The notes: generated from the letters alone by a model not told the origin. Positions 1 through 60,941 are shown, numbered from the stretch's first letter. The stretch: 64,000 nucleotides of DNA from an uncultured Bacteriovoracaceae bacterium (GCA_938034385.1 CALHLC010000008.1:1-64000); one strand, 5' to 3'. A program made the numbers and translations.

Positions 1-55
1 TTTAACACAGAGGTTCTAGATTCTCTTGATATGATACAGTAAAGGGGTATTTCAC

Positions 56-2053
56 ATGGAAGTGGAACAAAACTTATACCAGGTCACTGGCCTGTCAAAG
101 CGCGTAAAAATTGAGAGTAAACCTCTCTCTCAAGGACGTTATCTTGTTGGGTCAATTGATAATTGTGATGTTGTCATAAGTCATTCTTCAATCAAATCAA
201 TTCATGCCGTTTTAGAAATCTTTGATAATAAAATCAGTATCTATAGTCTTGATGCTGATAGTGATATTTTAGTTAATGGTGAATCAAAAACTGTTTCAAC
301 TATTGAAGTTGGAGATACAGTTAAGTTAGGTCATGTTGTTGTGGACTTTGACTTATTTCATGGAAAAGGAATCCCAACAATCCCTTCTCAAAAAATTAAA
401 GGTGAAGATTTTTTTGCGAGTAAGTCTCATAGTGTTGAAAAAGATGAAAATGTAGAAGCTCCTTATCTTATTTATCCATTTGATAAAAATTATAACTTTG
501 CTGGTAGTGAATATATTTTTGAAGACAGTGATCAGATTTATCCGATTTTTAAGTATAACCACAGCAAAGCTGCAGTAGAAGTGATTATCATTCACAAAAA
601 TAGAATTTTTTCAGTTGATTATATTGGAAACCATGATGGTATCTATAAATTGATTGGAATGAAGTTAAAAGAAAAATCTAGTATAGAATATCCATACTTG
701 CAGAAAAAAGAATCAGTTGATTTTATAGAAGCAAAAGGGAATTCATTTTTTGTTAATAAGTTAAATGGTTATAATGCTAGGATCTTTTCTGATGACAAGT
801 CAAAGATAGACAGTGCTTCAATTAATATTGCCCCAAATGATATTATTTCATTTGTTAAAGCAGATCTTTCTATTGTTGTTAGAAATGTAGAGGCTCCACC
901 TGAAGTAAGAACGGCACCAATTATTCCAAGAGATAAGACATTATTATTTATGTGTTTGCTTGGACTTATGATTGTGTTGATTCCTTTGTTGTTTTTATAC
1001 AATATGAATATTGACAAAGAAAAACTCAAGAAAGAAAAAGCTCCGGAGAGAATTGCAAAGCTTTTATTTAAGAAAAAGCCTTTTGCAAAAATAAAACCAA
1101 AACCAACAACTACTAAGGCCAAGCCGACAACAACGAAGCCTAAGCCTACGACGACTAAACCTAAGCCAAAGCCAAAAAAGAAGCCGGCTAAGAAACCGAC
1201 TTTAGCAAAAAAGGCACCAGGACCAAAGTTACCAACAAAGAAATTAAAACCTAAGTTATTGAAGAAAGGTAAATTACCTAAGAAAACAAAAAATATTAAA
1301 AACCCCGCACCTCCAAATAAGAAGGTAGGGAAGGCAACATCTAGGCCTAAGAAAAATACTGCTCAATCTAACAGACCTGGAGCTAAAAAAGTTGGTAAGA
1401 ATGTATCAAAGAATACAGTAACTGTTTCGCCGACACCAAATTCGAAAGGTACAGTAGATGTCTTTAAGAATGATAAGTTCAAGTCTTCATTGAATAAACT
1501 TCTTGCTAAGGGTGGTCAATTTAAAGGAATTAAAACTCAAGGTTCTAGTGGTGGTGGAGCAGGTTCTCCTGGGTACTCTGGAGCTGTCGGTGTTACAGGC
1601 GGTGGTGGAGTAACTACTGCAAATGTATCAGGAAAGCTTGGAAGTCCGACGGGTGTAAAAAATGGGGTTGAAGGATTTGCCAGTGGTGCAGATGGATTAA
1701 CAAATGGAACAAAGACTTTTTATCAAGCTGGAATCCCTAGTGATACAGCGGTACTTGGTTCTATGGATCCAGACTTAATTAGAAAAATATTAAGAGATCA
1801 TATTCCTCAATTTAGGTACTGTTATCAAAAAGAACTTGATAAAACTAGCAAACGATTCAATGGAGTAGTGAAGATGGTATTTACCATTGGAGCTTCAGGT
1901 AGTGTTTCAAAAGCAGCAGTACAAAGTTCTAAAGTGCCAGGTTCTGTTAAATCATGTGTAAGAAATGTTTTAATGGGTATTCAGTTTCCTAAACCTCTTG
2001 GAGGAGGGAAGGTTGAAGTTGGTCAGCCGATAAACTTTTATCCTAAAGGTTAG
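56..2053 (+). CDS. FHA-TM-AgmX/PglI C-terminal domain protein (GltG-like)
   Basis: A 665-aa inner-membrane protein. Residues about 27-95 form an FHA (phosphothreonine-binding) domain that would sit in the cytoplasm. One hydrophobic helix spans about 294-317. A Lys/Pro/Thr-rich linker (about 340-460, with KPTTTKPK-like repeats) could cross the periplasm. A Gly-rich stretch (about 495-530) leads to a C-terminal TonB-like AgmX/PglI domain (about 570-665) with two Cys (FRYCYQ and KSCVRN). Myxococcus GltG is known to combine a cytoplasmic FHA domain, one membrane helix and a periplasmic TonB-like end, and it partners the AglRQS motor. The downstream TolQ/TolR genes support the comparison. The start follows AAGGGG. 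Family assignment is strong; a role in gliding or another envelope force-transducing complex is inferred. Confidence 0.8.
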   Translation: MEVEQNLYQVTGLSKRVKIESKPLSQGRYLVGSIDNCDVVISHSSIKSIHAVLEIFDNKISIYSLDADSDILVNGESKTVSTIEVGDTVKLGHVVVDFDLFHGKGIPTIPSQKIKGEDFFASKSHSVEKDENVEAPYLIYPFDKNYNFAGSEYIFEDSDQIYPIFKYNHSKAAVEVIIIHKNRIFSVDYIGNHDGIYKLIGMKLKEKSSIEYPYLQKKESVDFIEAKGNSFFVNKLNGYNARIFSDDKSKIDSASINIAPNDIISFVKADLSIVVRNVEAPPEVRTAPIIPRDKTLLFMCLLGLMIVLIPLLFLYNMNIDKEKLKKEKAPERIAKLLFKKKPFAKIKPKPTTTKAKPTTTKPKPTTTKPKPKPKKKPAKKPTLAKKAPGPKLPTKKLKPKLLKKGKLPKKTKNIKNPAPPNKKVGKATSRPKKNTAQSNRPGAKKVGKNVSKNTVTVSPTPNSKGTVDVFKNDKFKSSLNKLLAKGGQFKGIKTQGSSGGGAGSPGYSGAVGVTGGGGVTTANVSGKLGSPTGVKNGVEGFASGADGLTNGTKTFYQAGIPSDTAVLGSMDPDLIRKILRDHIPQFRYCYQKELDKTSKRFNGVVKMVFTIGASGSVSKAAVQSSKVPGSVKSCVRNVLMGIQFPKPLGGGKVEVGQPINFYPKG

Positions 2054-2054
2054 T

Positions 2055-2480
2055 TTGAAGGCTATTCATTTAATACTTCTATTCATTTTGATGAATTGTG
2101 CTAATTATCAACGAGTTCAAGATAGTGAATCAAAGCTTAGTTCAAACTCAGAGAAAAAATCTTCAAATATGGATGATTCTTCTTATGGTATTGAACCAAG
2201 TTTAATTGATAGAATTTTGAGACATTACCGCCCGGACTTTAAAGATTGTGCCAAAAGTAATTTGAACGATAAAGGGGAGAGATTTTTAGGAGCAATAATG
2301 TTTTCTTTTATTATTAATTATGAAGGTGATGTTTCAGAGGTTCACATGGATGAGAGTGTAAAGCCTTTTTCGATGATGGAGTGTACCGAGAAAGTTCTAC
2401 GGAAAATTAGATTCCCTAAACTAAGAAATAATAAATCAATAAAAGTTACCAAACCTTTAAACTTCGCTGCAAAGAAATGA
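2055..2480 (+). CDS. small lipoprotein with AgmX/PglI-type C-terminal domain
   Basis: 141 aa, TTG start one base after the preceding stop, so probably translationally coupled. The N-terminus is a lipoprotein signal ending at the lipobox-like LMNC, so Cys15 is the likely lipidation site. Residues about 50-141 repeat the C-terminal domain of the upstream FHA protein: a LIDRILRHYRPDFKDC helix, a strand-rich middle, a second Cys (MMECTEK) and a final PLNF strand resembling PINF upstream. The domain lacks the long linker and membrane helix of its neighbour, so it may be a lipid-anchored partner or alternative receptor of the same motor. No function has been established that I recognise. Confidence 0.75.
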   Translation: MKAIHLILLFILMNCANYQRVQDSESKLSSNSEKKSSNMDDSSYGIEPSLIDRILRHYRPDFKDCAKSNLNDKGERFLGAIMFSFIINYEGDVSEVHMDESVKPFSMMECTEKVLRKIRFPKLRNNKSIKVTKPLNFAAKK

Positions 2481-2881
2481 AAAAGAAATTGATATTGACA
2501 TTGTTTTTTCTCTTTAACTGTGCAAGTAAGAAAGGTTTTCTTGTTAATAATTATCAGCCCAAAGATAGGAGAATAGGCGAGACAATTCTTATAAATCATC
2601 AAGATTCAAAAAGTGCGTATTCAGAGACGATAAAATATTCTTTGAAAGAAAATATTGAATTGATGGAGAAATGTGTTGAGGATTCAAGTTATCCTATTCG
2701 TTTTGCTTTAAAGTTTACAATTACTACAAGCGGAAAAGTGATTGATAATTCTGTCGAAAAGTTAAGCGATAAAGAACAAAGAAAGTGCTTAAATAAAGTA
2801 CTTTCTACAATAAACTTTCAACAACCTATAGGGTTAGGAAATGTTCAAGTTTACCAATCCATCAATCTCAATCGTAATTAG
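2477..2881 (+). CDS. small lipoprotein, divergent AgmX/PglI-like domain
   Basis: 134 aa, overlapping the previous stop by four bases (ATGA). The signal peptide ends in the lipobox-like LFNC. The C-terminal half again follows the layout of its two upstream neighbours: a helix with Cys (LMEKCVED), a strand-turn-strand with a G-K-V turn, a second Cys (QRKCLNKV), then NFQQPIGLGNVQVYQSINL, which aligns with PKPLGGGKVEVGQPINF at the end of the FHA protein. It is the most divergent of the three. This suggests a family expanded in place. Function unknown; probably periplasmic and part of the same complex. Confidence 0.7.
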   Translation: MKKKLILTLFFLFNCASKKGFLVNNYQPKDRRIGETILINHQDSKSAYSETIKYSLKENIELMEKCVEDSSYPIRFALKFTITTSGKVIDNSVEKLSDKEQRKCLNKVLSTINFQQPIGLGNVQVYQSINLNRN

Positions 2882-2994
2882 AAAAACACTCAACTATTAA
2901 AGCAATATCTTCCTAGGAAAAAATCTCCTATATGCTCTGCGTGAGACTCATAAGTATAAGATATTATTAAGAACTATTTTTAAGGAGTTTACCT

Positions 2995-3717
2995 ATGGAA
3001 GGTACAGAGCAACAAGCACTAGAACAAATGCAAGGAATGGATCCAAACATGATGGAGCCAACAGTTGAGAGTTTAGGCTTTATCGATCAGATGGGAATGT
3101 ATTTCCAAGACGGTGGTTTTTTTATGATCATCATTGCCGCTGTTTGGGTAATAGGGTTAGTGATCGCTTTAGAGAGATTTTTAAAGCTTAATAAGTTAGA
3201 TGTAGATGGTTCATCGTTTATGAATGAATTACAAAGATATGTATTATCAAATGATATTCAAGGAGCAATCAGAGTTTGCTCTGGATCAGTCGCAGCTCTT
3301 CCGAAGGTTTTACAATCTGGATTGAAAAGAGCAACTCAATCTATGGATCAAGTTCAAAATGCAATTGATGCAACAGCATTAGAAGTGATTCCAAAAGTTG
3401 AAAGAAGACTTAATTATTTATCATTAATAGCAAATATTGCGACTTTACTTGGACTACTTGGAACAATTTTTGGATTGATTCAATCTTTTGAAGCCGTTGC
3501 AGCTGCAGATCCTGCTGAGAAAGCAGAGATGTTATCAAATGGTATTTCTAAAGCAATGCTTACAACTGCTGCTGGATTAATAGTAGCTATTTCATTGATG
3601 GTTTTACATTCAGTTTTATCTAGTAAAGCAGATAGAATTGTTAATTCAATTGATGAATTTGCTGTAAAGCTTTTAGATCTTATCGGGACAAAGAAAGAAA
3701 AAGATCAGGTAGCGTAG
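2995..3717 (+). CDS. MotA/TolQ/ExbB family proton channel (AglR-like)
   Basis: A 240-aa inner-membrane channel subunit with three hydrophobic segments: about 42-60 (FFMIIIAAVWVIGLVIAL), about 143-165 (LIANIATLLGLLGTIFGLIQ) and about 185-208. The conserved GLLGTIFGLI loop and the following helix are typical of TolQ/ExbB/AglR. These proteins form a pentamer around TolR/ExbD dimers and use proton flow to drive periplasmic motion. The N-terminus carries a Met/Gln/Glu-rich extension of about 30 residues. The start follows AAGGAG. Two TolR-type genes follow at three-base spacings, an aglR-aglQ-aglS order. It is distinct from the tolQ at 55977, so the genome has at least two such motors. Confidence 0.88.
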   Translation: MEGTEQQALEQMQGMDPNMMEPTVESLGFIDQMGMYFQDGGFFMIIIAAVWVIGLVIALERFLKLNKLDVDGSSFMNELQRYVLSNDIQGAIRVCSGSVAALPKVLQSGLKRATQSMDQVQNAIDATALEVIPKVERRLNYLSLIANIATLLGLLGTIFGLIQSFEAVAAADPAEKAEMLSNGISKAMLTTAAGLIVAISLMVLHSVLSSKADRIVNSIDEFAVKLLDLIGTKKEKDQVA

Positions 3718-3720
3718 AAA

Positions 3721-4257
3721 ATGTATACTTTACCAAGTAGAAGACAAAAGAAAAAAAGGAACGATAAGTTAAACTTAGTGCCTATCTTGGACTCTGTTTT
3801 TATCCTGATTTTCTTTTTACTTCTATCTGCTCAATTTATTAAGCTTTTTGAAATTAATAGTAATGTTCCGATCGTTTCAAGTAAAAGTCCTCCTCCTCCT
3901 AAAAAACAAAAGGAACCACTTTCTCTCACAGTTGAGATAAAAAAAGGTGAGCTTGTCTTTTTAACGGGAAGTAATCAAGTTGAATTAAAGAAGTTTCCAG
4001 CTAATACTGAGGGAGAATATCCTTTTGTTGAAGTGCATACTTTTTTAATTGAATTGAAAAAGAAACATATTGACGAGCAAACAATTATTTTTGAACCAGA
4101 TGAAGATATTGAGTATGAGCAAATCGTAAAGTTAATGGATACAGTTAGACTTTTAGAAAAAACCGATGAAACTATTTATAGAAAAGACGAGATAGAGGGA
4201 GATGTTCCTCTTGAGTTTTTATTCGATGATATAGTTTTTGGAAATATAACGAGTTAA
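3721..4257 (+). CDS. ExbD/TolR family biopolymer transport protein (first copy)
   Basis: 178 aa. A basic cytoplasmic N-terminus (RRQKKKRNDK) precedes a single membrane helix at about 23-42 containing the conserved proton-carrying Asp (VPILDSVFILIFFLLL). A PPPPKKQ linker and a periplasmic domain of about 120 residues follow. It is longer than classical TolR (about 140 aa). The gene starts three bases after the TolQ-like stop and ends three bases before a second TolR-like gene. AglQ or AglS would be the Myxococcus equivalent. Family certain, specific role inferred from context. Confidence 0.85.
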   Translation: MYTLPSRRQKKKRNDKLNLVPILDSVFILIFFLLLSAQFIKLFEINSNVPIVSSKSPPPPKKQKEPLSLTVEIKKGELVFLTGSNQVELKKFPANTEGEYPFVEVHTFLIELKKKHIDEQTIIFEPDEDIEYEQIVKLMDTVRLLEKTDETIYRKDEIEGDVPLEFLFDDIVFGNITS

Positions 4258-4260
4258 ATT

Positions 4261-4785
4261 ATGGCAAGAAATAGATCCATTCGATTTAGAAAACTTAGGA
4301 AATCTAAAGAACCGATGGATATTGATATCACGTCACTCTTAGATATTCTTGTTATCCTACTTGTCTTTTTATTAAAGGCCTATAGCTCCAATAATATTAT
4401 TATTAGTATTCCTAAAGGTATTACTATCCCAGATTCAACATCACAGTCATTTAATAATGCGGGTGTTATTATTCAAGTATCGAAAGAAAAAATCTTCGTT
4501 GATTCTCAAGAGGTTGTTGATTACTTTACAAACCCTGAAGGATTAGAAATTTATGGAGATGGAGGGAGACTAGTAACTCCTTTGTTTGATAGATTGGTGC
4601 AAGTTAGAGAAGAAATTGAGCTTGTTAAGCAACAGGCCAATATTGAAAAAGAGTTCTCCGGTATCGTTAATCTCGTCGTTGATAAAGAAATCAAGTATAT
4701 AGAGGTAAAACGAGTTCTTTATACAGCTGCACAAGCTGGTTTTAAGAGTTATAAATTCGTTGTATTGAGCCAAGAGCAAATGTAG
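4261..4785 (+). CDS. ExbD/TolR family biopolymer transport protein (second copy)
   Basis: 174 aa. A basic N-terminus (RFRKLRKSKEP) is followed by a membrane helix with the conserved Asp (DITSLLDILVILLVFLL, about 22-40). The periplasmic domain ends in a VKRVLYTAAQAGF-like segment typical of TolR/ExbD. Together with the preceding copy it gives a heterodimeric-type motor (one TolQ, two TolR), as known for AglRQS. It is the last gene of the cluster; the next gene is 123 bases away with its own ribosome-binding site. Confidence 0.85.
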   Translation: MARNRSIRFRKLRKSKEPMDIDITSLLDILVILLVFLLKAYSSNNIIISIPKGITIPDSTSQSFNNAGVIIQVSKEKIFVDSQEVVDYFTNPEGLEIYGDGGRLVTPLFDRLVQVREEIELVKQQANIEKEFSGIVNLVVDKEIKYIEVKRVLYTAAQAGFKSYKFVVLSQEQM

Positions 4786-55976: not shown

Positions 55977-56672
55977 GTGGATATATTTAAAATTATTTTA
56001 GAATCTAGCATTATAGTTCAGCTAGTCCTTTTGCTGCTTATTATTATGTCAGTTGCTTCTTGGGCCGTGGTTTTTCATTATTATAAGTATTATAAAAGTC
56101 TTCATGCTTTAAATGAAAAATTTAAAAGCAATTTTTTTAAAGATGGAGTTGCTACATTAGGCTCCATGTCTGAGTTTAGCTCCAGAATAGATAAGTTTAA
56201 AAGCTCTCCTCTTCACTCTCTATGGAAAGTCTTTCATAAAGAGTTAAATAAAATTAACAAGAAGCTAAAGATTAAGGATGACCAAAGTTTAGCTAGCTAC
56301 TTGGCCCTTGGTGATTTTAGCAATTTTGAAAGATCCTTGGATCAAGAAATTTATGATCAAATCCATGATATTGATAAGCATAGAACTCTTCTTGCCAGTA
56401 TTGCTACAGTTGCTCCTTTTGTAGGGCTTTTTGGAACTGTATGGGGAATTATAAATTCTTTCACAGGATTGGCCGATGGTGGTGCTGGAACAATTGAAGC
56501 TGTTGCTCCAGGAATCTCTGAAGCATTAGTGGCTACGGCTGTAGGTTTATTTGCTGCTATTCCAGCTTCATGGTTTTTTAATTATTTTTCTAAAAATCTG
56601 AAAAAGGTAAAACTTGAATTAGAGTCGTTTTCTAAAGATTTATTAAATATCTTAAAATATTATTCAATTTAA
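55977..56672 (+). CDS. tolQ: TolQ proton-channel subunit
   Basis: 231 aa, GTG start behind AGGAGA. Three membrane segments; the family signature is ASIATVAPFVGLFGTVWGIINSF, with EALVATAVGLFAAIPASWFFNYF after it. With TolR it forms the proton-driven motor that moves TolA. The closely following tolR, tolA and tolB genes settle the assignment as Tol rather than ExbB. Stabilises the outer membrane and its constriction at division. Confidence 0.93.
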   Translation: MDIFKIILESSIIVQLVLLLLIIMSVASWAVVFHYYKYYKSLHALNEKFKSNFFKDGVATLGSMSEFSSRIDKFKSSPLHSLWKVFHKELNKINKKLKIKDDQSLASYLALGDFSNFERSLDQEIYDQIHDIDKHRTLLASIATVAPFVGLFGTVWGIINSFTGLADGGAGTIEAVAPGISEALVATAVGLFAAIPASWFFNYFSKNLKKVKLELESFSKDLLNILKYYSI

Positions 56673-56683
56673 GGAGGTTTGCA

Positions 56684-57094
56684 ATGGGACTTCGAACTTC
56701 AAATGATGATGAGATAATGGCTGAAATAAATGTAACACCCTTAGTGGATGTTATGTTGGTTTTACTTGTAATTTTTATGATTAGTGCACCTTTAATGTAC
56801 AATGGAATAAGCTTAAAGCTACCAAAGACTCAAAAAGTTAATAATTTACAATTAAGTAGTGAGAAAATCATTCTATCTATTGATCAAACAGAAGACTTTT
56901 ATCTAGGTGATCAGAAAGTATTAAAATCTGAGTTAATAGAAATGCTACAAGAGTTAAAGAAAGTAAAAAACACAGAAGATATTTTTGTAAGAGCAGATGC
57001 GAGAGTTAAATATGGAACAGTTGCTCAAACTTTTGCTTATTTAAAATCTCAAGGAATTACGTCAGTATCTTTGATTACTGAAATTGAAAAGTAG
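56684..57094 (+). CDS. tolR: TolR
   Basis: 136 aa, typical length. The membrane helix has the conserved Asp (INVTPLVDVMLVLLVIFMISAPL). The periplasmic part ends VKYGTVAQTFAYLKSQGITSVSLIT, as in TolR/ExbD. Preceded by AAGGAGG. Distinct from the two longer TolR-like proteins at 3721 and 4261. Confidence 0.93.
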   Translation: MGLRTSNDDEIMAEINVTPLVDVMLVLLVIFMISAPLMYNGISLKLPKTQKVNNLQLSSEKIILSIDQTEDFYLGDQKVLKSELIEMLQELKKVKNTEDIFVRADARVKYGTVAQTFAYLKSQGITSVSLITEIEK

Positions 57095-57101
57095 GGAATA
57101 A

Positions 57102-58016
57102 TTGAAAAGAGGAATTATATTCTCGTTATTATTTCACTTTATTATGATAGGACTGTTTTTTTTCTTAGAAGCAGGGCCTTTTTCTGATAAGTCAAAATCG
57201 AAGTTGCCCCCTAAGTTTAAAGTGATTAGAGACTCTGTTAAGGTTGATTTGGTAGGACTTCCTGATTTAACAAAGAAAGAACTTGAGAGTTTACCTCGAT
57301 TTACAAAACCAACTCCGAAGAAGTCTATTAAACCTACTTCTAAAAAGAAAACTAAAACTAAAGTGACTTTAGATGAGCCTGAGTCAGATGTTGTAAAACT
57401 TCAAAAAAAGAAAAAAGCTGAAGCTAAGAAGAAAGCTGAAGCTAAGAAAAAAGCTAAAGCTAAGAAAAAAGCTGAAGCTAAGAAAAAAGTTGAAGAAGAG
57501 AAGAAAGCAGAAGAACAGAGGAAAGCAGAGGAAGAGAAGAAAGCTGAAGAAGAGAAGAAAGCAGAAGAAGAGAGGAAAGTAGAAGAAGAAAGAAAAGCAG
57601 AGGAAGAAAGAAAAGCAGAGGAAGATCGAAAGAGATTGGAAACCGTCAATGATTTAGAAGAACTCGTAAAAGCAGGGAATAAAGTTTCCAAAGGAAGTTC
57701 AATAGATTCAGAAAATGAATCTCAAAACGATATACATCTTGAATCTGAAAAATATGGACTAAGTGTTAATCAAATAGTTAAGGCCAATTGGAAACTACCT
57801 ACGAGCTTAAAAGATAAGGACTTACAGTGTTCAATTCGATTATTTATTGACCAGAATGGTAAGCTTATTAAACAAGAAATCTTAAATGGCTCAGGAGATG
57901 ATGAATACGACAAGATTGTTCAGGAGACGGTCGAAATGTCAGGTCCTTATCCAGAACCGGAAAAGAGTGTGAGAGATTATGTTTTAAATGGTAATCTTGT
58001 ATTAGTATTTCCTTAA
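57102..58016 (+). CDS. tolA: TolA-like protein with TonB-type C-terminus
   Basis: 304 aa, TTG start. An N-terminal membrane anchor (FSLLFHFIMIGLFFFLEAG) is followed by a long Lys/Glu/Ala helix (about 100-185, KKAEAKKKAEEEKK-type repeats), the classical TolA domain II. A C-terminal domain (about 225-304: VNQIVKANWKLPTSLKDKDLQCSIRLFIDQNGKLIK) matches TonB_C/TolA domain III. The position between tolR and tolB supports the name. It transmits TolQR force to TolB/Pal. Confidence 0.88.
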   Translation: MKRGIIFSLLFHFIMIGLFFFLEAGPFSDKSKSKLPPKFKVIRDSVKVDLVGLPDLTKKELESLPRFTKPTPKKSIKPTSKKKTKTKVTLDEPESDVVKLQKKKKAEAKKKAEAKKKAKAKKKAEAKKKVEEEKKAEEQRKAEEEKKAEEEKKAEEERKVEEERKAEEERKAEEDRKRLETVNDLEELVKAGNKVSKGSSIDSENESQNDIHLESEKYGLSVNQIVKANWKLPTSLKDKDLQCSIRLFIDQNGKLIKQEILNGSGDDEYDKIVQETVEMSGPYPEPEKSVRDYVLNGNLVLVFP

Positions 58017-58028
58017 AAAAGAGTTGAT

Positions 58029-59306
58029 ATGAAGATATTAAAATTAGTTATTCTTTTAGTTTTAAGTTCAAAAGCATGGTCTCAGTCATATACTACTATA
58101 AATGTAGGCCAGGCAGGTTTAGCTTTAGAGAAGATGATTATCCTTTCTTATAATTGCAATGCTGCACTAGATAATAAGATGGTTGGAACAATTAGATCAG
58201 ATTTTGTTTTTTATGAAGATAAAATTAGAGTTGATCTACGTTCAACAAATACCAGTTTTTCTAATAACCTTAAGCGATTATACAGTGATGGGTATTCAAG
58301 GTTAACAGAGGTTAATTGTGCAAATAATAAGATTGATATCTATAATACGAGATCAAACTCTCTTATTAAGTCATTACCTTTACTTAATCATGAAAATACT
58401 AGAACGAGAGCTCATTTAAACGCTGACAATATTTACCAAACGCTTTATGGAAAAAAATCCTTATTTACTTCTAAATTAACTTTTTCTGCCAGTGGGAATA
58501 CAAGTTTAAGAAAAACGAAAAAAGAACTTTTTATCTGTGACTTTGATGGAGGGAATTTAAAGCAACTTACAAATCATGGTGGAATAGTTTTGTCTCCAGC
58601 TTTTTCTCCAGATAATAGAAGAATCATTTATAGTTTAATACCACCACGTTCACGAGATATAGTTTTATATGAGCATAACTTGGATACCGGGCTTACTCGT
58701 GTGATCCTTGATAAGAAAGGACTTATCATCGGAGCTGTTTATACTGCCGATGGTGCAGGAATTTATCTGACTATTAGTAATAGAAGTAATGCTGATATTT
58801 ATTATATGAATGTTTCAACAAAAGCCTTAAGAAGAGTGACTAATCATAGATCTGAAGATGTTGATCCAGCAATTAATAAGGCCGGAAACTTAATGAGTTT
58901 TCTTTCAGGAAGAGCGGGAAGAGCGATGATTTATTCAATGGATCCTATTACAGGAGAGCCTGCTTCAAGGCCAAAGCGAATAAGTTATGTTGGTAAAGTA
59001 AATGCAACACCTAGGTTTTCTCCAGATGGGAGCGAAATAGTGTTCTCATCTTGGAAAGATAATACATTTGATATTTTTAGGTTTTATGCCAATGGACAGT
59101 CTTTAGTTAGACTCACATCGAACTTTGGTTCAAATGAGAATCCGACCTTCTCACCTGAGGGCCAATTTATTGCCTTTTCATCAAAAAGAGTGATCAGTCG
59201 ACGACAGCTTGATCAAAATTTATACATTATGACTCGAGATGGTAAGAATATAAGACCAATTACGAAAAACATTGGACAGTGCTCTTCTCCACGCTTCTCT
59301 AACTAG
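58029..59306 (+). CDS. tolB: TolB
   Basis: 425 aa, signal peptide MKILKLVILLVLSSKAWSQ. The N-terminal domain (about 20-160) precedes a six-bladed WD40-like beta-propeller whose repeats read SPAFSPDNRRIIYSL, SFLSGRAGRAMIYSMD, TPRFSPDGSEIVFSSWK and NPTFSPEGQFIAFSSKR. It binds Pal and TolA in the periplasm. A pal gene does not follow in this window, although it often does elsewhere. Confidence 0.93.
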   Translation: MKILKLVILLVLSSKAWSQSYTTINVGQAGLALEKMIILSYNCNAALDNKMVGTIRSDFVFYEDKIRVDLRSTNTSFSNNLKRLYSDGYSRLTEVNCANNKIDIYNTRSNSLIKSLPLLNHENTRTRAHLNADNIYQTLYGKKSLFTSKLTFSASGNTSLRKTKKELFICDFDGGNLKQLTNHGGIVLSPAFSPDNRRIIYSLIPPRSRDIVLYEHNLDTGLTRVILDKKGLIIGAVYTADGAGIYLTISNRSNADIYYMNVSTKALRRVTNHRSEDVDPAINKAGNLMSFLSGRAGRAMIYSMDPITGEPASRPKRISYVGKVNATPRFSPDGSEIVFSSWKDNTFDIFRFYANGQSLVRLTSNFGSNENPTFSPEGQFIAFSSKRVISRRQLDQNLYIMTRDGKNIRPITKNIGQCSSPRFSN

Positions 59307-59369
59307 TTGAAATTATAAAGAAAAAGTGTAAAAAATACAGTACTTGATAAAATTTATCTTGTAAAATTT

Positions 59370-59405
59370 TTACGCACTGCTATACTGATATTGATTACGC
59401 ATTGC
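59370..59405. promoter_or_regulatory. direct repeat TTACGCA(C/T)TGC upstream of the regulator gene
   Basis: Two 11-base copies (59370-59380 and 59395-59405) differing at one base, spaced 25 bases start to start, in the 144-bp gap between tolB and the regulator gene. Candidate operator; possibly autoregulatory. Confidence 0.4.
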
Positions 59406-59450
59406 ACATAAATAAATGCTTTTTAATATTTAACCGTATAGGAGTTCAAC

Positions 59451-60941
59451 ATGATCAAGATTAACCTTAATGAGTCAAACTTAAGACCTTCAGCTTTAGA
59501 AGCACTACTTCTTAGTGAGCTAAAAGAGGAAGTGTTTTTTCCAGAACTATCTAAGCATTTACACTTAATGACTGGAGATTGTGTTGAAATTCACCTCTGC
59601 TTTAATGATGAGTCTACGCAATTAATTGCTAGAGATGGTATTTGTATTCAAGGTTCTGATGTTCAAGCTAGAGGAATGGGACCTGCAGGATATGTAGCAA
59701 AAACTAAGAGATTCTATTACAGCAATAACGTTTCTAGGGATCCAGTTTTCTCATCTGTATCAAGAGCAGCTCATATAAACTCTGAATTAATCGTTCCAGT
59801 AAATTTAACTGATAAAGTTATTGCAACTATTCATATTCAATCATCTGATGCTGATAAGAAATTCTCAGAGCAGGATGCATTATCAATAATGGAATTTTTA
59901 AACGATATCAAAACTCCTCTTACAAACGTTAATCTTTACTTAATGGCTAAATACTTAAATCAAGAATTATTATTAAAAGTAAAAAATCAAACTCCTTCAC
60001 TAGAGACGAACAATGCTGAAGTTGAAAGAGTTGAAATGATTGGAAAGCACCCAGACTTTTTAAAGTCACTTTCTATGGCTTCAAGAGTAGCTGCTCAAGA
60101 TATTCCTGTTCTTATCCAAGGTGAAACTGGAGTAGGGAAAAGACTTTTAGGGAAGAAGATTCATACTATGAGTCAAAGAAAGCATAGCTCTTTTAGAGTA
60201 ATTGAATGTGCTACTTTAAATGATGAGTCTTTAGAAAAAGAGATCTTTGGATGTTTAGATAGAAAGGGATCTTTAGAACTAGGAAATAATGGAACAGTTT
60301 TATTTAATGAGATTGGACTTTTAAGCCCTAAACTACAAGCAATGGTTTTTAATTTTTTAACAACAGGAATGATCGCTAGAGTTGGATCTGAAAAAGATAT
60401 TAATTTAAACGTTAGAGTAATCGCTACTTCAAAAAGACCTCTTATAGGATATGTTAATGAAAACAAATTAAGAGAAGACTTATACTATAGATTAGCTACT
60501 GTTCAAATAGACCTTCCTTCTTTAAGACAAAGAGGCGAAGATGTGAAACTTATCGCTAATCACTTCTTAAACAATAATAAATCTGAGAAAAAATTCTTAA
60601 CAGCTGGAGCAATGGATCAGTTATTAGACTTTGCTTGGGAATCAAATGTTATTGAATTAAGAAATGCAATGGAGAGAACTTACGCTTTAACTGATGGTAA
60701 ATTTGTAGAGAAAATTGAAATGAATGGTTTTTCTAAGCCTGAAAAGAAAGAAGAAGTTATTACTAGAGAGCCAGCTTTTGAGCCAATCTCAATCTCTGAA
60801 ATAGAAAAAAGACATATCTGTAAAACTCTAGAATTCCATGGTGGAAATAAAACTAGAGCTGCAAAGTCTCTAGGAGTAACAGTAAAGACTCTTTATAATA
60901 AACTTCACAGTTATGGTTTAGTTAGCAAAAACGTACAATAA
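59451..60941 (+). CDS. NtrC-family regulator (GAF-AAA-Fis) lacking the GAFTGA loop
   Basis: 496 aa. An N-terminal GAF domain (about 15-165) is followed by an AAA+ domain (about 195-420) with Walker A (QGETGVGKRLLGKKI), sensor-like VRVIATSKRP and the R-finger region REDLYYRLATVQIDLPSLRQRGEDV. The C-terminal Fis-type HTH is GNKTRAAKSLGVTVKTLYNKL. The GAFTGA sigma-54 loop is absent: EIFGCLDRKGSLELGNNGTV replaces it with a deletion. The Walker B Asp is Asn (VLFNEIG). It is therefore unlikely to remodel sigma-54 polymerase and may act as a repressor or a sigma-70 regulator. Terminated by a hairpin. Confidence 0.85.
   Translation: MIKINLNESNLRPSALEALLLSELKEEVFFPELSKHLHLMTGDCVEIHLCFNDESTQLIARDGICIQGSDVQARGMGPAGYVAKTKRFYYSNNVSRDPVFSSVSRAAHINSELIVPVNLTDKVIATIHIQSSDADKKFSEQDALSIMEFLNDIKTPLTNVNLYLMAKYLNQELLLKVKNQTPSLETNNAEVERVEMIGKHPDFLKSLSMASRVAAQDIPVLIQGETGVGKRLLGKKIHTMSQRKHSSFRVIECATLNDESLEKEIFGCLDRKGSLELGNNGTVLFNEIGLLSPKLQAMVFNFLTTGMIARVGSEKDINLNVRVIATSKRPLIGYVNENKLREDLYYRLATVQIDLPSLRQRGEDVKLIANHFLNNNKSEKKFLTAGAMDQLLDFAWESNVIELRNAMERTYALTDGKFVEKIEMNGFSKPEKKEEVITREPAFEPISISEIEKRHICKTLEFHGGNKTRAAKSLGVTVKTLYNKLHSYGLVSKNVQ

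What the first reader, a model, noticed from the sequence alone, without database searches (positions are those of the whole stretch)
56..4785. Agl/Glt-like envelope motor cluster with three AgmX-type partners
One TolQ-type and two TolR-type genes (aglRQS order) follow an FHA-TM-Pro/Lys-AgmX protein and two lipoproteins carrying the same C-terminal domain. In Myxococcus, GltG (FHA, one TM, TonB-like end) works with the AglRQS motor to drive gliding. The cluster is separate from the tolQRAB set at 55977-59306. The two lipid-anchored paralogs are an addition I do not know from the described Glt system. If the organism is a predator, the cluster may power surface gliding or prey attachment.
Basis: partly seen in the sequence, partly recalled or inferred. 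Interest (0 to 1): 0.68.

Follow-up and report, generated by a model that had tools for sequence, protein, structure and literature searches.

The report
Gliding-type motor operon with extra lipoproteins
This is the downstream half of a proton-driven envelope-machine operon of the kind that powers gliding in myxobacteria and prey contact in Bdellovibrio, a known kind of system, here with two small lipoproteins that carry a copy of the machine's own force-transmitting end domain.

Summary
Window 56-4785 encodes a GltG-like protein (FHA, one TM, TonB-type tail), two short lipoproteins with the same tail fold, a TolQ-type channel and two TolR-type proteins. The window starts at a contig end; the neighbouring contig overlaps it by 124 identical bases and carries the rest of the operon (OMP_myx, GltC, GltD position, GltE, CglF). 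Two sister genomes have it unbroken. The TolQ-like protein falls in one clade with the TolQ of both TolQ-TolR-TolR triplets of gliding myxobacteria, apart from TolQ and ExbB (support 100/99). It is one of four Agl/Glt-type core sets in a Bdellovibrionota genome, a kind described for Bdellovibrio in 2010-2011. Gliding itself is not shown. GltJ was not found and the GltG equivalog cut-off is not met. The lipoproteins are real TonB-fold proteins, but lipo1 is missing from three congeners and lipo2 diverges fast. About 11 of 50 family gltG loci (six genera) have such a lipoprotein. Their role is inferred: a lipid-anchored copy of the GltG docking domain that holds, or competes for, GltG's partner. 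Ordinary machine, new accessory variant.

The parts
1..42 (+). 3' end of the CglF/GltF-like gene (80 aa; most of it lies on contig C7)
   Evidence: 124-base exact overlap of C7 and the window; NF033764 CglF 20.6 bits, E 3e-4, below its cut-off of 90; same gene order in G001 and G002
56..2053 (+). GltG-like force transducer: FHA, one TM, Pro/Lys linker, TonBC tail (665 aa)
   Evidence: NF033760 GltG 87.8 bits, E 6e-25, far below the equivalog cut-off of 650
119..349 (+). FHA / YscD-type cytosolic domain of the GltG-like protein (aa 22-98)
   Evidence: PF16697 E 4e-12, PF00498 E 1.9e-6
941..997 (+). single transmembrane helix of the GltG-like protein (aa 296-314); no His
   Evidence: hydropathy
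1763..2038 (+). AgmX/PglI (TonBC) tail of the GltG-like protein (aa 570-661)
   Evidence: NF033768 69.5 bits
2055..2480 (+). lipo1: short lipoprotein (TTG start, lipobox LMNC) with the same tail domain; only in this genome within the genus
   Evidence: NF033768 42.7 bits; AlphaFold model and TonB/TolA matches Z 5-7.7; absent in G001-G003
2477..2881 (+). lipo2: short lipoprotein with a diverged tail domain, conserved in the genus
   Evidence: NF033768 25.5 bits; profile comparison 96.8%; model and TonB/TolA matches Z up to 8.8; orthologs with a plain lipobox
2995..3717 (+). AglR-type TolQ-like proton channel subunit (240 aa)
   Evidence: PF01618 97 bits; tree; TM2 and TM3 Thr kept
3721..4257 (+). 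TolR-like subunit 1 (AglQ position), membrane Asp kept
   Evidence: PF02472 54 bits; alignment
4261..4785 (+). TolR-like subunit 2 (AglS position), membrane Asp kept
   Evidence: PF02472 46 bits; alignment

Best explanation
The genes are the downstream half of one Agl/Glt-type core complex, a proton-driven machine that spans the envelope. Shown by sequence: an AglR-type TolQ plus two TolR-like proteins with intact proton-path residues; a GltG-like transducer with a cytosolic FHA domain, one TM, a Pro/Lys linker and a TonB-type tail; and, on the adjoining contig, an OMP_myx barrel and GltC-like, long TPR (GltD position), GltE-like and CglF/GltF-like genes. Inferred from Myxococcus: proton flow through the channel moves the GltG rod across the cell wall so that its tail engages outer-membrane partners and transmits force to the surface, for gliding or prey contact. 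Inferred and new: lipo1 and lipo2 are lipid-anchored periplasmic copies of the GltG tail, probably in the outer membrane, that bind or compete for the same partners and tune the GltG contact rather than power it.
For: Motor in the Agl-type clade with both TolQ-TolR-TolR triplets of Archangium and Hyalangium, 100/99. Conserved Asp and Thr residues. Tail, FHA and GltC, GltE, CglF, OMP_myx models match. Operon continuity by the 124-base overlap and by G001 and G002. Synteny across the family. Fold of both lipoproteins. Literature: GltG-AglR interaction and core complex, TonBC model, aglS Bd0838 mutant fails to attach to prey.
Against: Equivalog cut-offs for GltG, GltC, GltE and CglF are not reached. 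No GltJ beyond a tail match and no Roadblock/LC7 (MglB) match. Set I is not a demonstrated ortholog of AglRQS; sets I, III and IV split inside this lineage. No phenotype is known for this organism. Nothing tests the role or the membrane of the lipoproteins.
Confidence: 0.68

Rival explanations
1. The same core complex serves another job, such as movement or anchoring inside the prey, prey exit, or moving a surface polymer as Nfs does on Myxococcus spores; surface gliding is the work of another of the four sets.
For: Four sets in this genome. In B. bacteriovorus the four operons have different expression times: Bd0412-0420 early in prey, Bd2368-2377 at exit. Paralogous clusters in M. xanthus do not serve motility and G3 is the Nfs sporulation system.
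Against: Set I is the set most regularly found across the family (20 of 25 genomes), as expected of a general function; Bd0838 of another such set is needed for prey attachment.
Confidence: 0.35
2. It is a TonB/ExbBD-type or Tol-Pal-type energizer for transport or envelope upkeep, not an Agl/Glt machine.
For: TolQ/ExbB/TolR models match at low score; TonB-type tail.
Against: Agl-type clade apart from TolQ and ExbB with 100/99 support; two TolR-like genes; FHA on the transducer; GltC, GltE, CglF and OMP_myx genes in the same operon; a separate tolQRAB set exists.
Confidence: 0.04
3. The two lipoproteins are drifting by-products of tail duplication with no part in the machine.
For: lipo1 is found only in the window's genome within its genus, and its best match is the tail of the set IV GltG, 37.9%. 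lipo2 has dN 0.21 against 0.03 for gltG. Most genera lack any tail lipoprotein in this slot.
Against: lipo2 is under purifying selection (dN/dS about 0.08, dS saturated) and keeps the Cys pair and fold. Separate lipoprotein lineages sit in the same slot after gltG in six genera, and one follows a GltG-like gene in another system of G017.
Confidence: 0.3

Closest known systems
Agl/tonB-like 'gliding' operons of Bdellovibrio bacteriovorus (Bd0412-0420, Bd0828-0838, Bd1473-1483, Bd2368-2377)
   Same: Four sets per genome; AglR/Q/S plus Glt core genes; same phylum (PMC2797640, PMC3169522)
   Different: No tail lipoproteins are mentioned in the papers read here; orthology of set I with one of the four operons is not established
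AglRQS-Glt gliding machine of Myxococcus xanthus
   Same: AglR-type motor with two TolR-like proteins, GltG with FHA, TM and TonBC tail, GltC, GltE, GltF/CglF-like genes
   Different: GltJ not found; GltH, GltI and GltK not tested; genes in one operon rather than three clusters; two extra tail lipoproteins
Nfs spore-coat system of Myxococcus xanthus
   Same: Paralogous Glt-type core driven by the same kind of motor
   Different: Sporulation function; no evidence of sporulation here
TonB and TolA C-terminal domains (PDB 5lw8, 6i97, 2x9a, 1tol)
   Same: Fold of the tail domain of lipo1 and lipo2
   Different: TonB and TolA tails belong to inner-membrane anchored proteins; two of the three tails here are on lipoproteins

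Membership tests
Agl/Glt-type core complex (Luciano et al. 2011) | TolQ-like subunit in the AglR-type clade, apart from TolQ/ExbB | tested here: met
   100/99 support, 65 rows; SH-aLRT 98 in an 85-row tree
Agl/Glt-type core complex (Luciano et al. 2011) | Two TolR-like subunits with the proton Asp next to the TolQ-like gene | tested here: met
Agl/Glt-type core complex (Luciano et al. 2011) | GltG-type transducer: FHA, one TM, TonBC tail | tested here: met
Agl/Glt-type core complex (Luciano et al. 2011) | GltC, GltD and GltE in the same operon | tested here: met
   GltC E 3e-33, GltE E 4e-7 with stronger general TPR matches; GltD only by TPR content, size and position
Myxococcus-type gliding machine | GltG equivalog score (NF033760, 650 bits) | tested here: not met
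   87.8 bits; Archangium and Hyalangium GltG score 995-1072
Myxococcus-type gliding machine | GltJ | tested here: not met
   Only tail matches, best 36 bits against a cut-off of 450
Myxococcus-type gliding machine | GltH, GltI, GltK | not tested
   Reported absent from B. bacteriovorus as well
Myxococcus-type gliding machine | Motor-dependent surface gliding | not testable with these tools
   Needs a cultured strain and deletions
AgmX/PglI (TonBC) tail domain, NF033768 | Curated score of 40 bits, lipo1 | tested here: met
   42.7 bits
AgmX/PglI (TonBC) tail domain, NF033768 | Curated score of 40 bits, lipo2 | tested here: not met
   25.5 bits, E 1e-5; the fold and Cys pair agree all the same
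Bacterial lipoprotein | Signal peptide with lipobox Cys | tested here: inconclusive
   LMNC and LFNC have an unusual Asn at -1 in the window; orthologs read LISC and FLSC; no dedicated predictor was available
TonB/ExbBD or Tol-Pal energizer | TolQ-like subunit groups with TolQ or ExbB | tested here: not met
TonB/ExbBD or Tol-Pal energizer | His in the transducer TM | tested here: not met
   No His in the GltG TM of the window or relatives; none in that of Archangium and Hyalangium GltG

The most novel reading that the evidence does not exclude
Outer-membrane lipoproteins with a TonB-fold domain are working parts of an Agl/Glt machine: they take over, hold or release the partner that the motor-driven GltG tail grips, a hand-off between an inner-membrane-anchored and an outer-membrane-anchored copy of one domain.
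Probability: 0.2. Interest if true: 0.65.

Novelty: new variant of a known kind. Interest (0 to 1): 0.36.

Why it matters
A 2026 review of gliding calls the motor, adhesins and force path of Bdellovibrio gliding a major open challenge (PMC13104615). This locus gives a compact, syntenic Agl/Glt core in a related lineage and a small, deletable accessory, a lipid-anchored copy of the transducer's docking domain, that could show where GltG makes contact at the outer membrane.

Tried and rejected
A first tail alignment was too divergent for the genome-contig scan, so a four-row alignment was used. PDB sequence search with GltG: no match up to E 0.1; with AglR: TolQ, ExbB and one designed repeat protein. 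Which myxobacterial triplet is AglRQS and which is M2 could not be settled from lengths. A tree of tail domains to date lipo1 was unresolved. Lipoprotein forms among the 80 loci brought in by AgmX tails: none in 84 tails, but that set was chosen by tail similarity and is no survey. Promoter scan: fewer promoter-like sites than in shuffles, not used. The stops reported inside the best Arf hit (C47) were not followed as a broken MglA; a clear 195-aa MglA-like protein is on C31. TonB/ExbBD and Tol-Pal membership was rejected on the tree.

Full report
What is there. HMM searches give FHA plus the AgmX/PglI tail on the 665-aa protein, the tail on lipo1 (just over the curated cut-off) and weakly on lipo2, MotA/ExbB on the TolQ-like protein and ExbD/TolR on the last two. 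The separate tolQRAB set is real.

The cluster is larger. The window is the start of contig C8. A search with the GltG-like protein found its first 23 residues again at the start of contig C7. The reverse complement of C7 ends with exactly the first 124 bases of the window, and the same 124-base overlap exists in sister genome G003. C7 carries, in the same direction, an OMP_myx barrel, a GltC-like protein, a 958-aa TPR protein in the GltD position, a TPR lipoprotein of GltE type and an 80-aa CglF-like protein. In sister genomes G001 and G002 the order runs unbroken on one contig, so the join is sound.

Four sets. The genome has seven MotA/TolQ/ExbB proteins: TolQ of the tol set, an ExbB-like one, a MotA-like one and four in Agl/Glt-type sets. 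These are I (C7/C8), II (C22), III (C47) and IV (C23 and C36, taken together because their genes are complementary; no sequence overlap was found). This parallels the four agl/tonB-like operons of B. bacteriovorus (PMC2797640; PMC3169522).

Family of the motor. A scan for the tail domain in named genomes brought in Archangium violaceum, A. lansinium and Hyalangium versicolor. Each has nine or ten MotA/TolQ/ExbB matches, and exactly two TolQ-TolR-TolR triplets per genome score 173-184 bits against a TolQ model made from the window-type sets; all others score 89 or less. In a 65-row maximum-likelihood tree all Agl-type proteins, the window's included, form one side of a branch with 100/99 support, apart from TolQ and ExbB (an 85-row quick tree agrees, SH-aLRT 98). 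Sets I, III and IV form one clade within it, so these paralogs arose inside this lineage, and set I cannot be equated with a particular Bd operon or with AglRQS itself. Both TolR-like proteins keep the membrane Asp, and the TolQ-like protein keeps the Thr residues of TM2 and TM3.

Conservation. A set I GltG is found in 20 of the 25 family genomes searched first, the window's included. In most genera the order is OMP-GltC-GltD-GltE-CglF-GltG, with the TolQ-TolR-TolR block convergent to it. In the window's genus that block follows gltG in the same direction.

The lipoproteins. The tails of lipo1, lipo2, other short lipoproteins and the GltG proteins share an invariant Cys pair and a Gly over 30 sequences. 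Profile comparison places lipo1 (98.5%) and lipo2 (96.8%) with GltG tails. AlphaFold models (mean pLDDT 86.1 for lipo2, 81.7 for lipo1) match TonB and TolA C-terminal domains in nearly all top rows: Z 5-7.7 for lipo1, where unrelated rows lie mostly at 4.5 and below; Z up to 8.8 for lipo2, where some unrelated rows reach 5-6. Orthologs of lipo2 have a plain lipobox. lipo1 is absent in G003, whose GltG is 96% identical, and in G001 and G002. Its best match is the tail of the set IV GltG, 37.9%. lipo2 is 64% identical to its G003 ortholog against 94-97% for GltG and the motor, yet dN/dS is low, about 0.08 with saturated dS. Among about 50 gltG loci looked at in the family, 11 in six genera have one or two such lipoproteins directly after gltG. 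A tree separates the lipo2 of this genus from a second type in five other genera. Lipoproteins with the same domain away from gltG occur in this genome (C44, C5) and in relatives.

How it most likely works. Shown: the parts list, the motor family, the residues and the domain folds. Inferred from Myxococcus: proton flow drives the channel, GltG transmits the stroke through the cell wall, and its tail grips an outer-membrane partner (PMC3169522; PMC5349195). Inferred here: the lipoproteins are lipid-anchored copies of that gripping domain and so probably bind the same partner or compete for it. What the machine does in this organism is open. In B. bacteriovorus an aglS (Bd0838) transposon mutant does not attach to prey (PMC6561027), other sets peak early in the prey or at exit (PMC12546842), and cGAMP signalling controls gliding (PMC9140294). 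An MglA-like GTPase is present, but no Roadblock/LC7 (MglB) match was found. That the organism is a predator is likely from its phylum but not shown.

Verdict. The machine is a known kind. The TonB-fold lipoproteins after gltG are an accessory variant that no paper found here describes; their role is untested.

Noticed in passing
L052:11080-11619 (set II, contig C22): The first TolR-like protein of set II lacks the membrane Asp (reads LPFMSLL) that the second one keeps, so this motor may carry only one proton-binding TolR type.
   Followed up: no
L058:10885-11241 and L059:5646-6047 (own genome); L308-L317 (relatives): Short lipoproteins with the TonBC tail also occur away from any gltG, in the window's genome and in at least eight relatives.
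   Followed up: partly
L079:9954-12643 (G017): A different operon of TolQ, one TolR, a GltG-like protein without the long N-terminal part, and a 131-aa tail lipoprotein: the pairing of transducer and tail lipoprotein recurs.
   Followed up: partly
L050:16178-17368 and L051:13499-14719: Sister genomes G002 and G001 have a 396-406 aa protein without a confident family match directly after the second TolR gene; the window has none there.
   Followed up: no
window 55977-59450: The tolQRAB set is followed by a sigma-54-type regulator (59451-60941) and not directly by pal.
   Followed up: no
window 1-124 and L047:1-124: Contigs C8 and C7 share 124 identical end bases, as do C41 and C30 of G003: both assemblies break at the same place inside gltG.
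   Followed up: yes
L307:1318-1905 (contig C31): An MglA-like 195-aa GTPase gene lies after recR, but no Roadblock/LC7 (MglB) match was found in the genome.
   Followed up: partly
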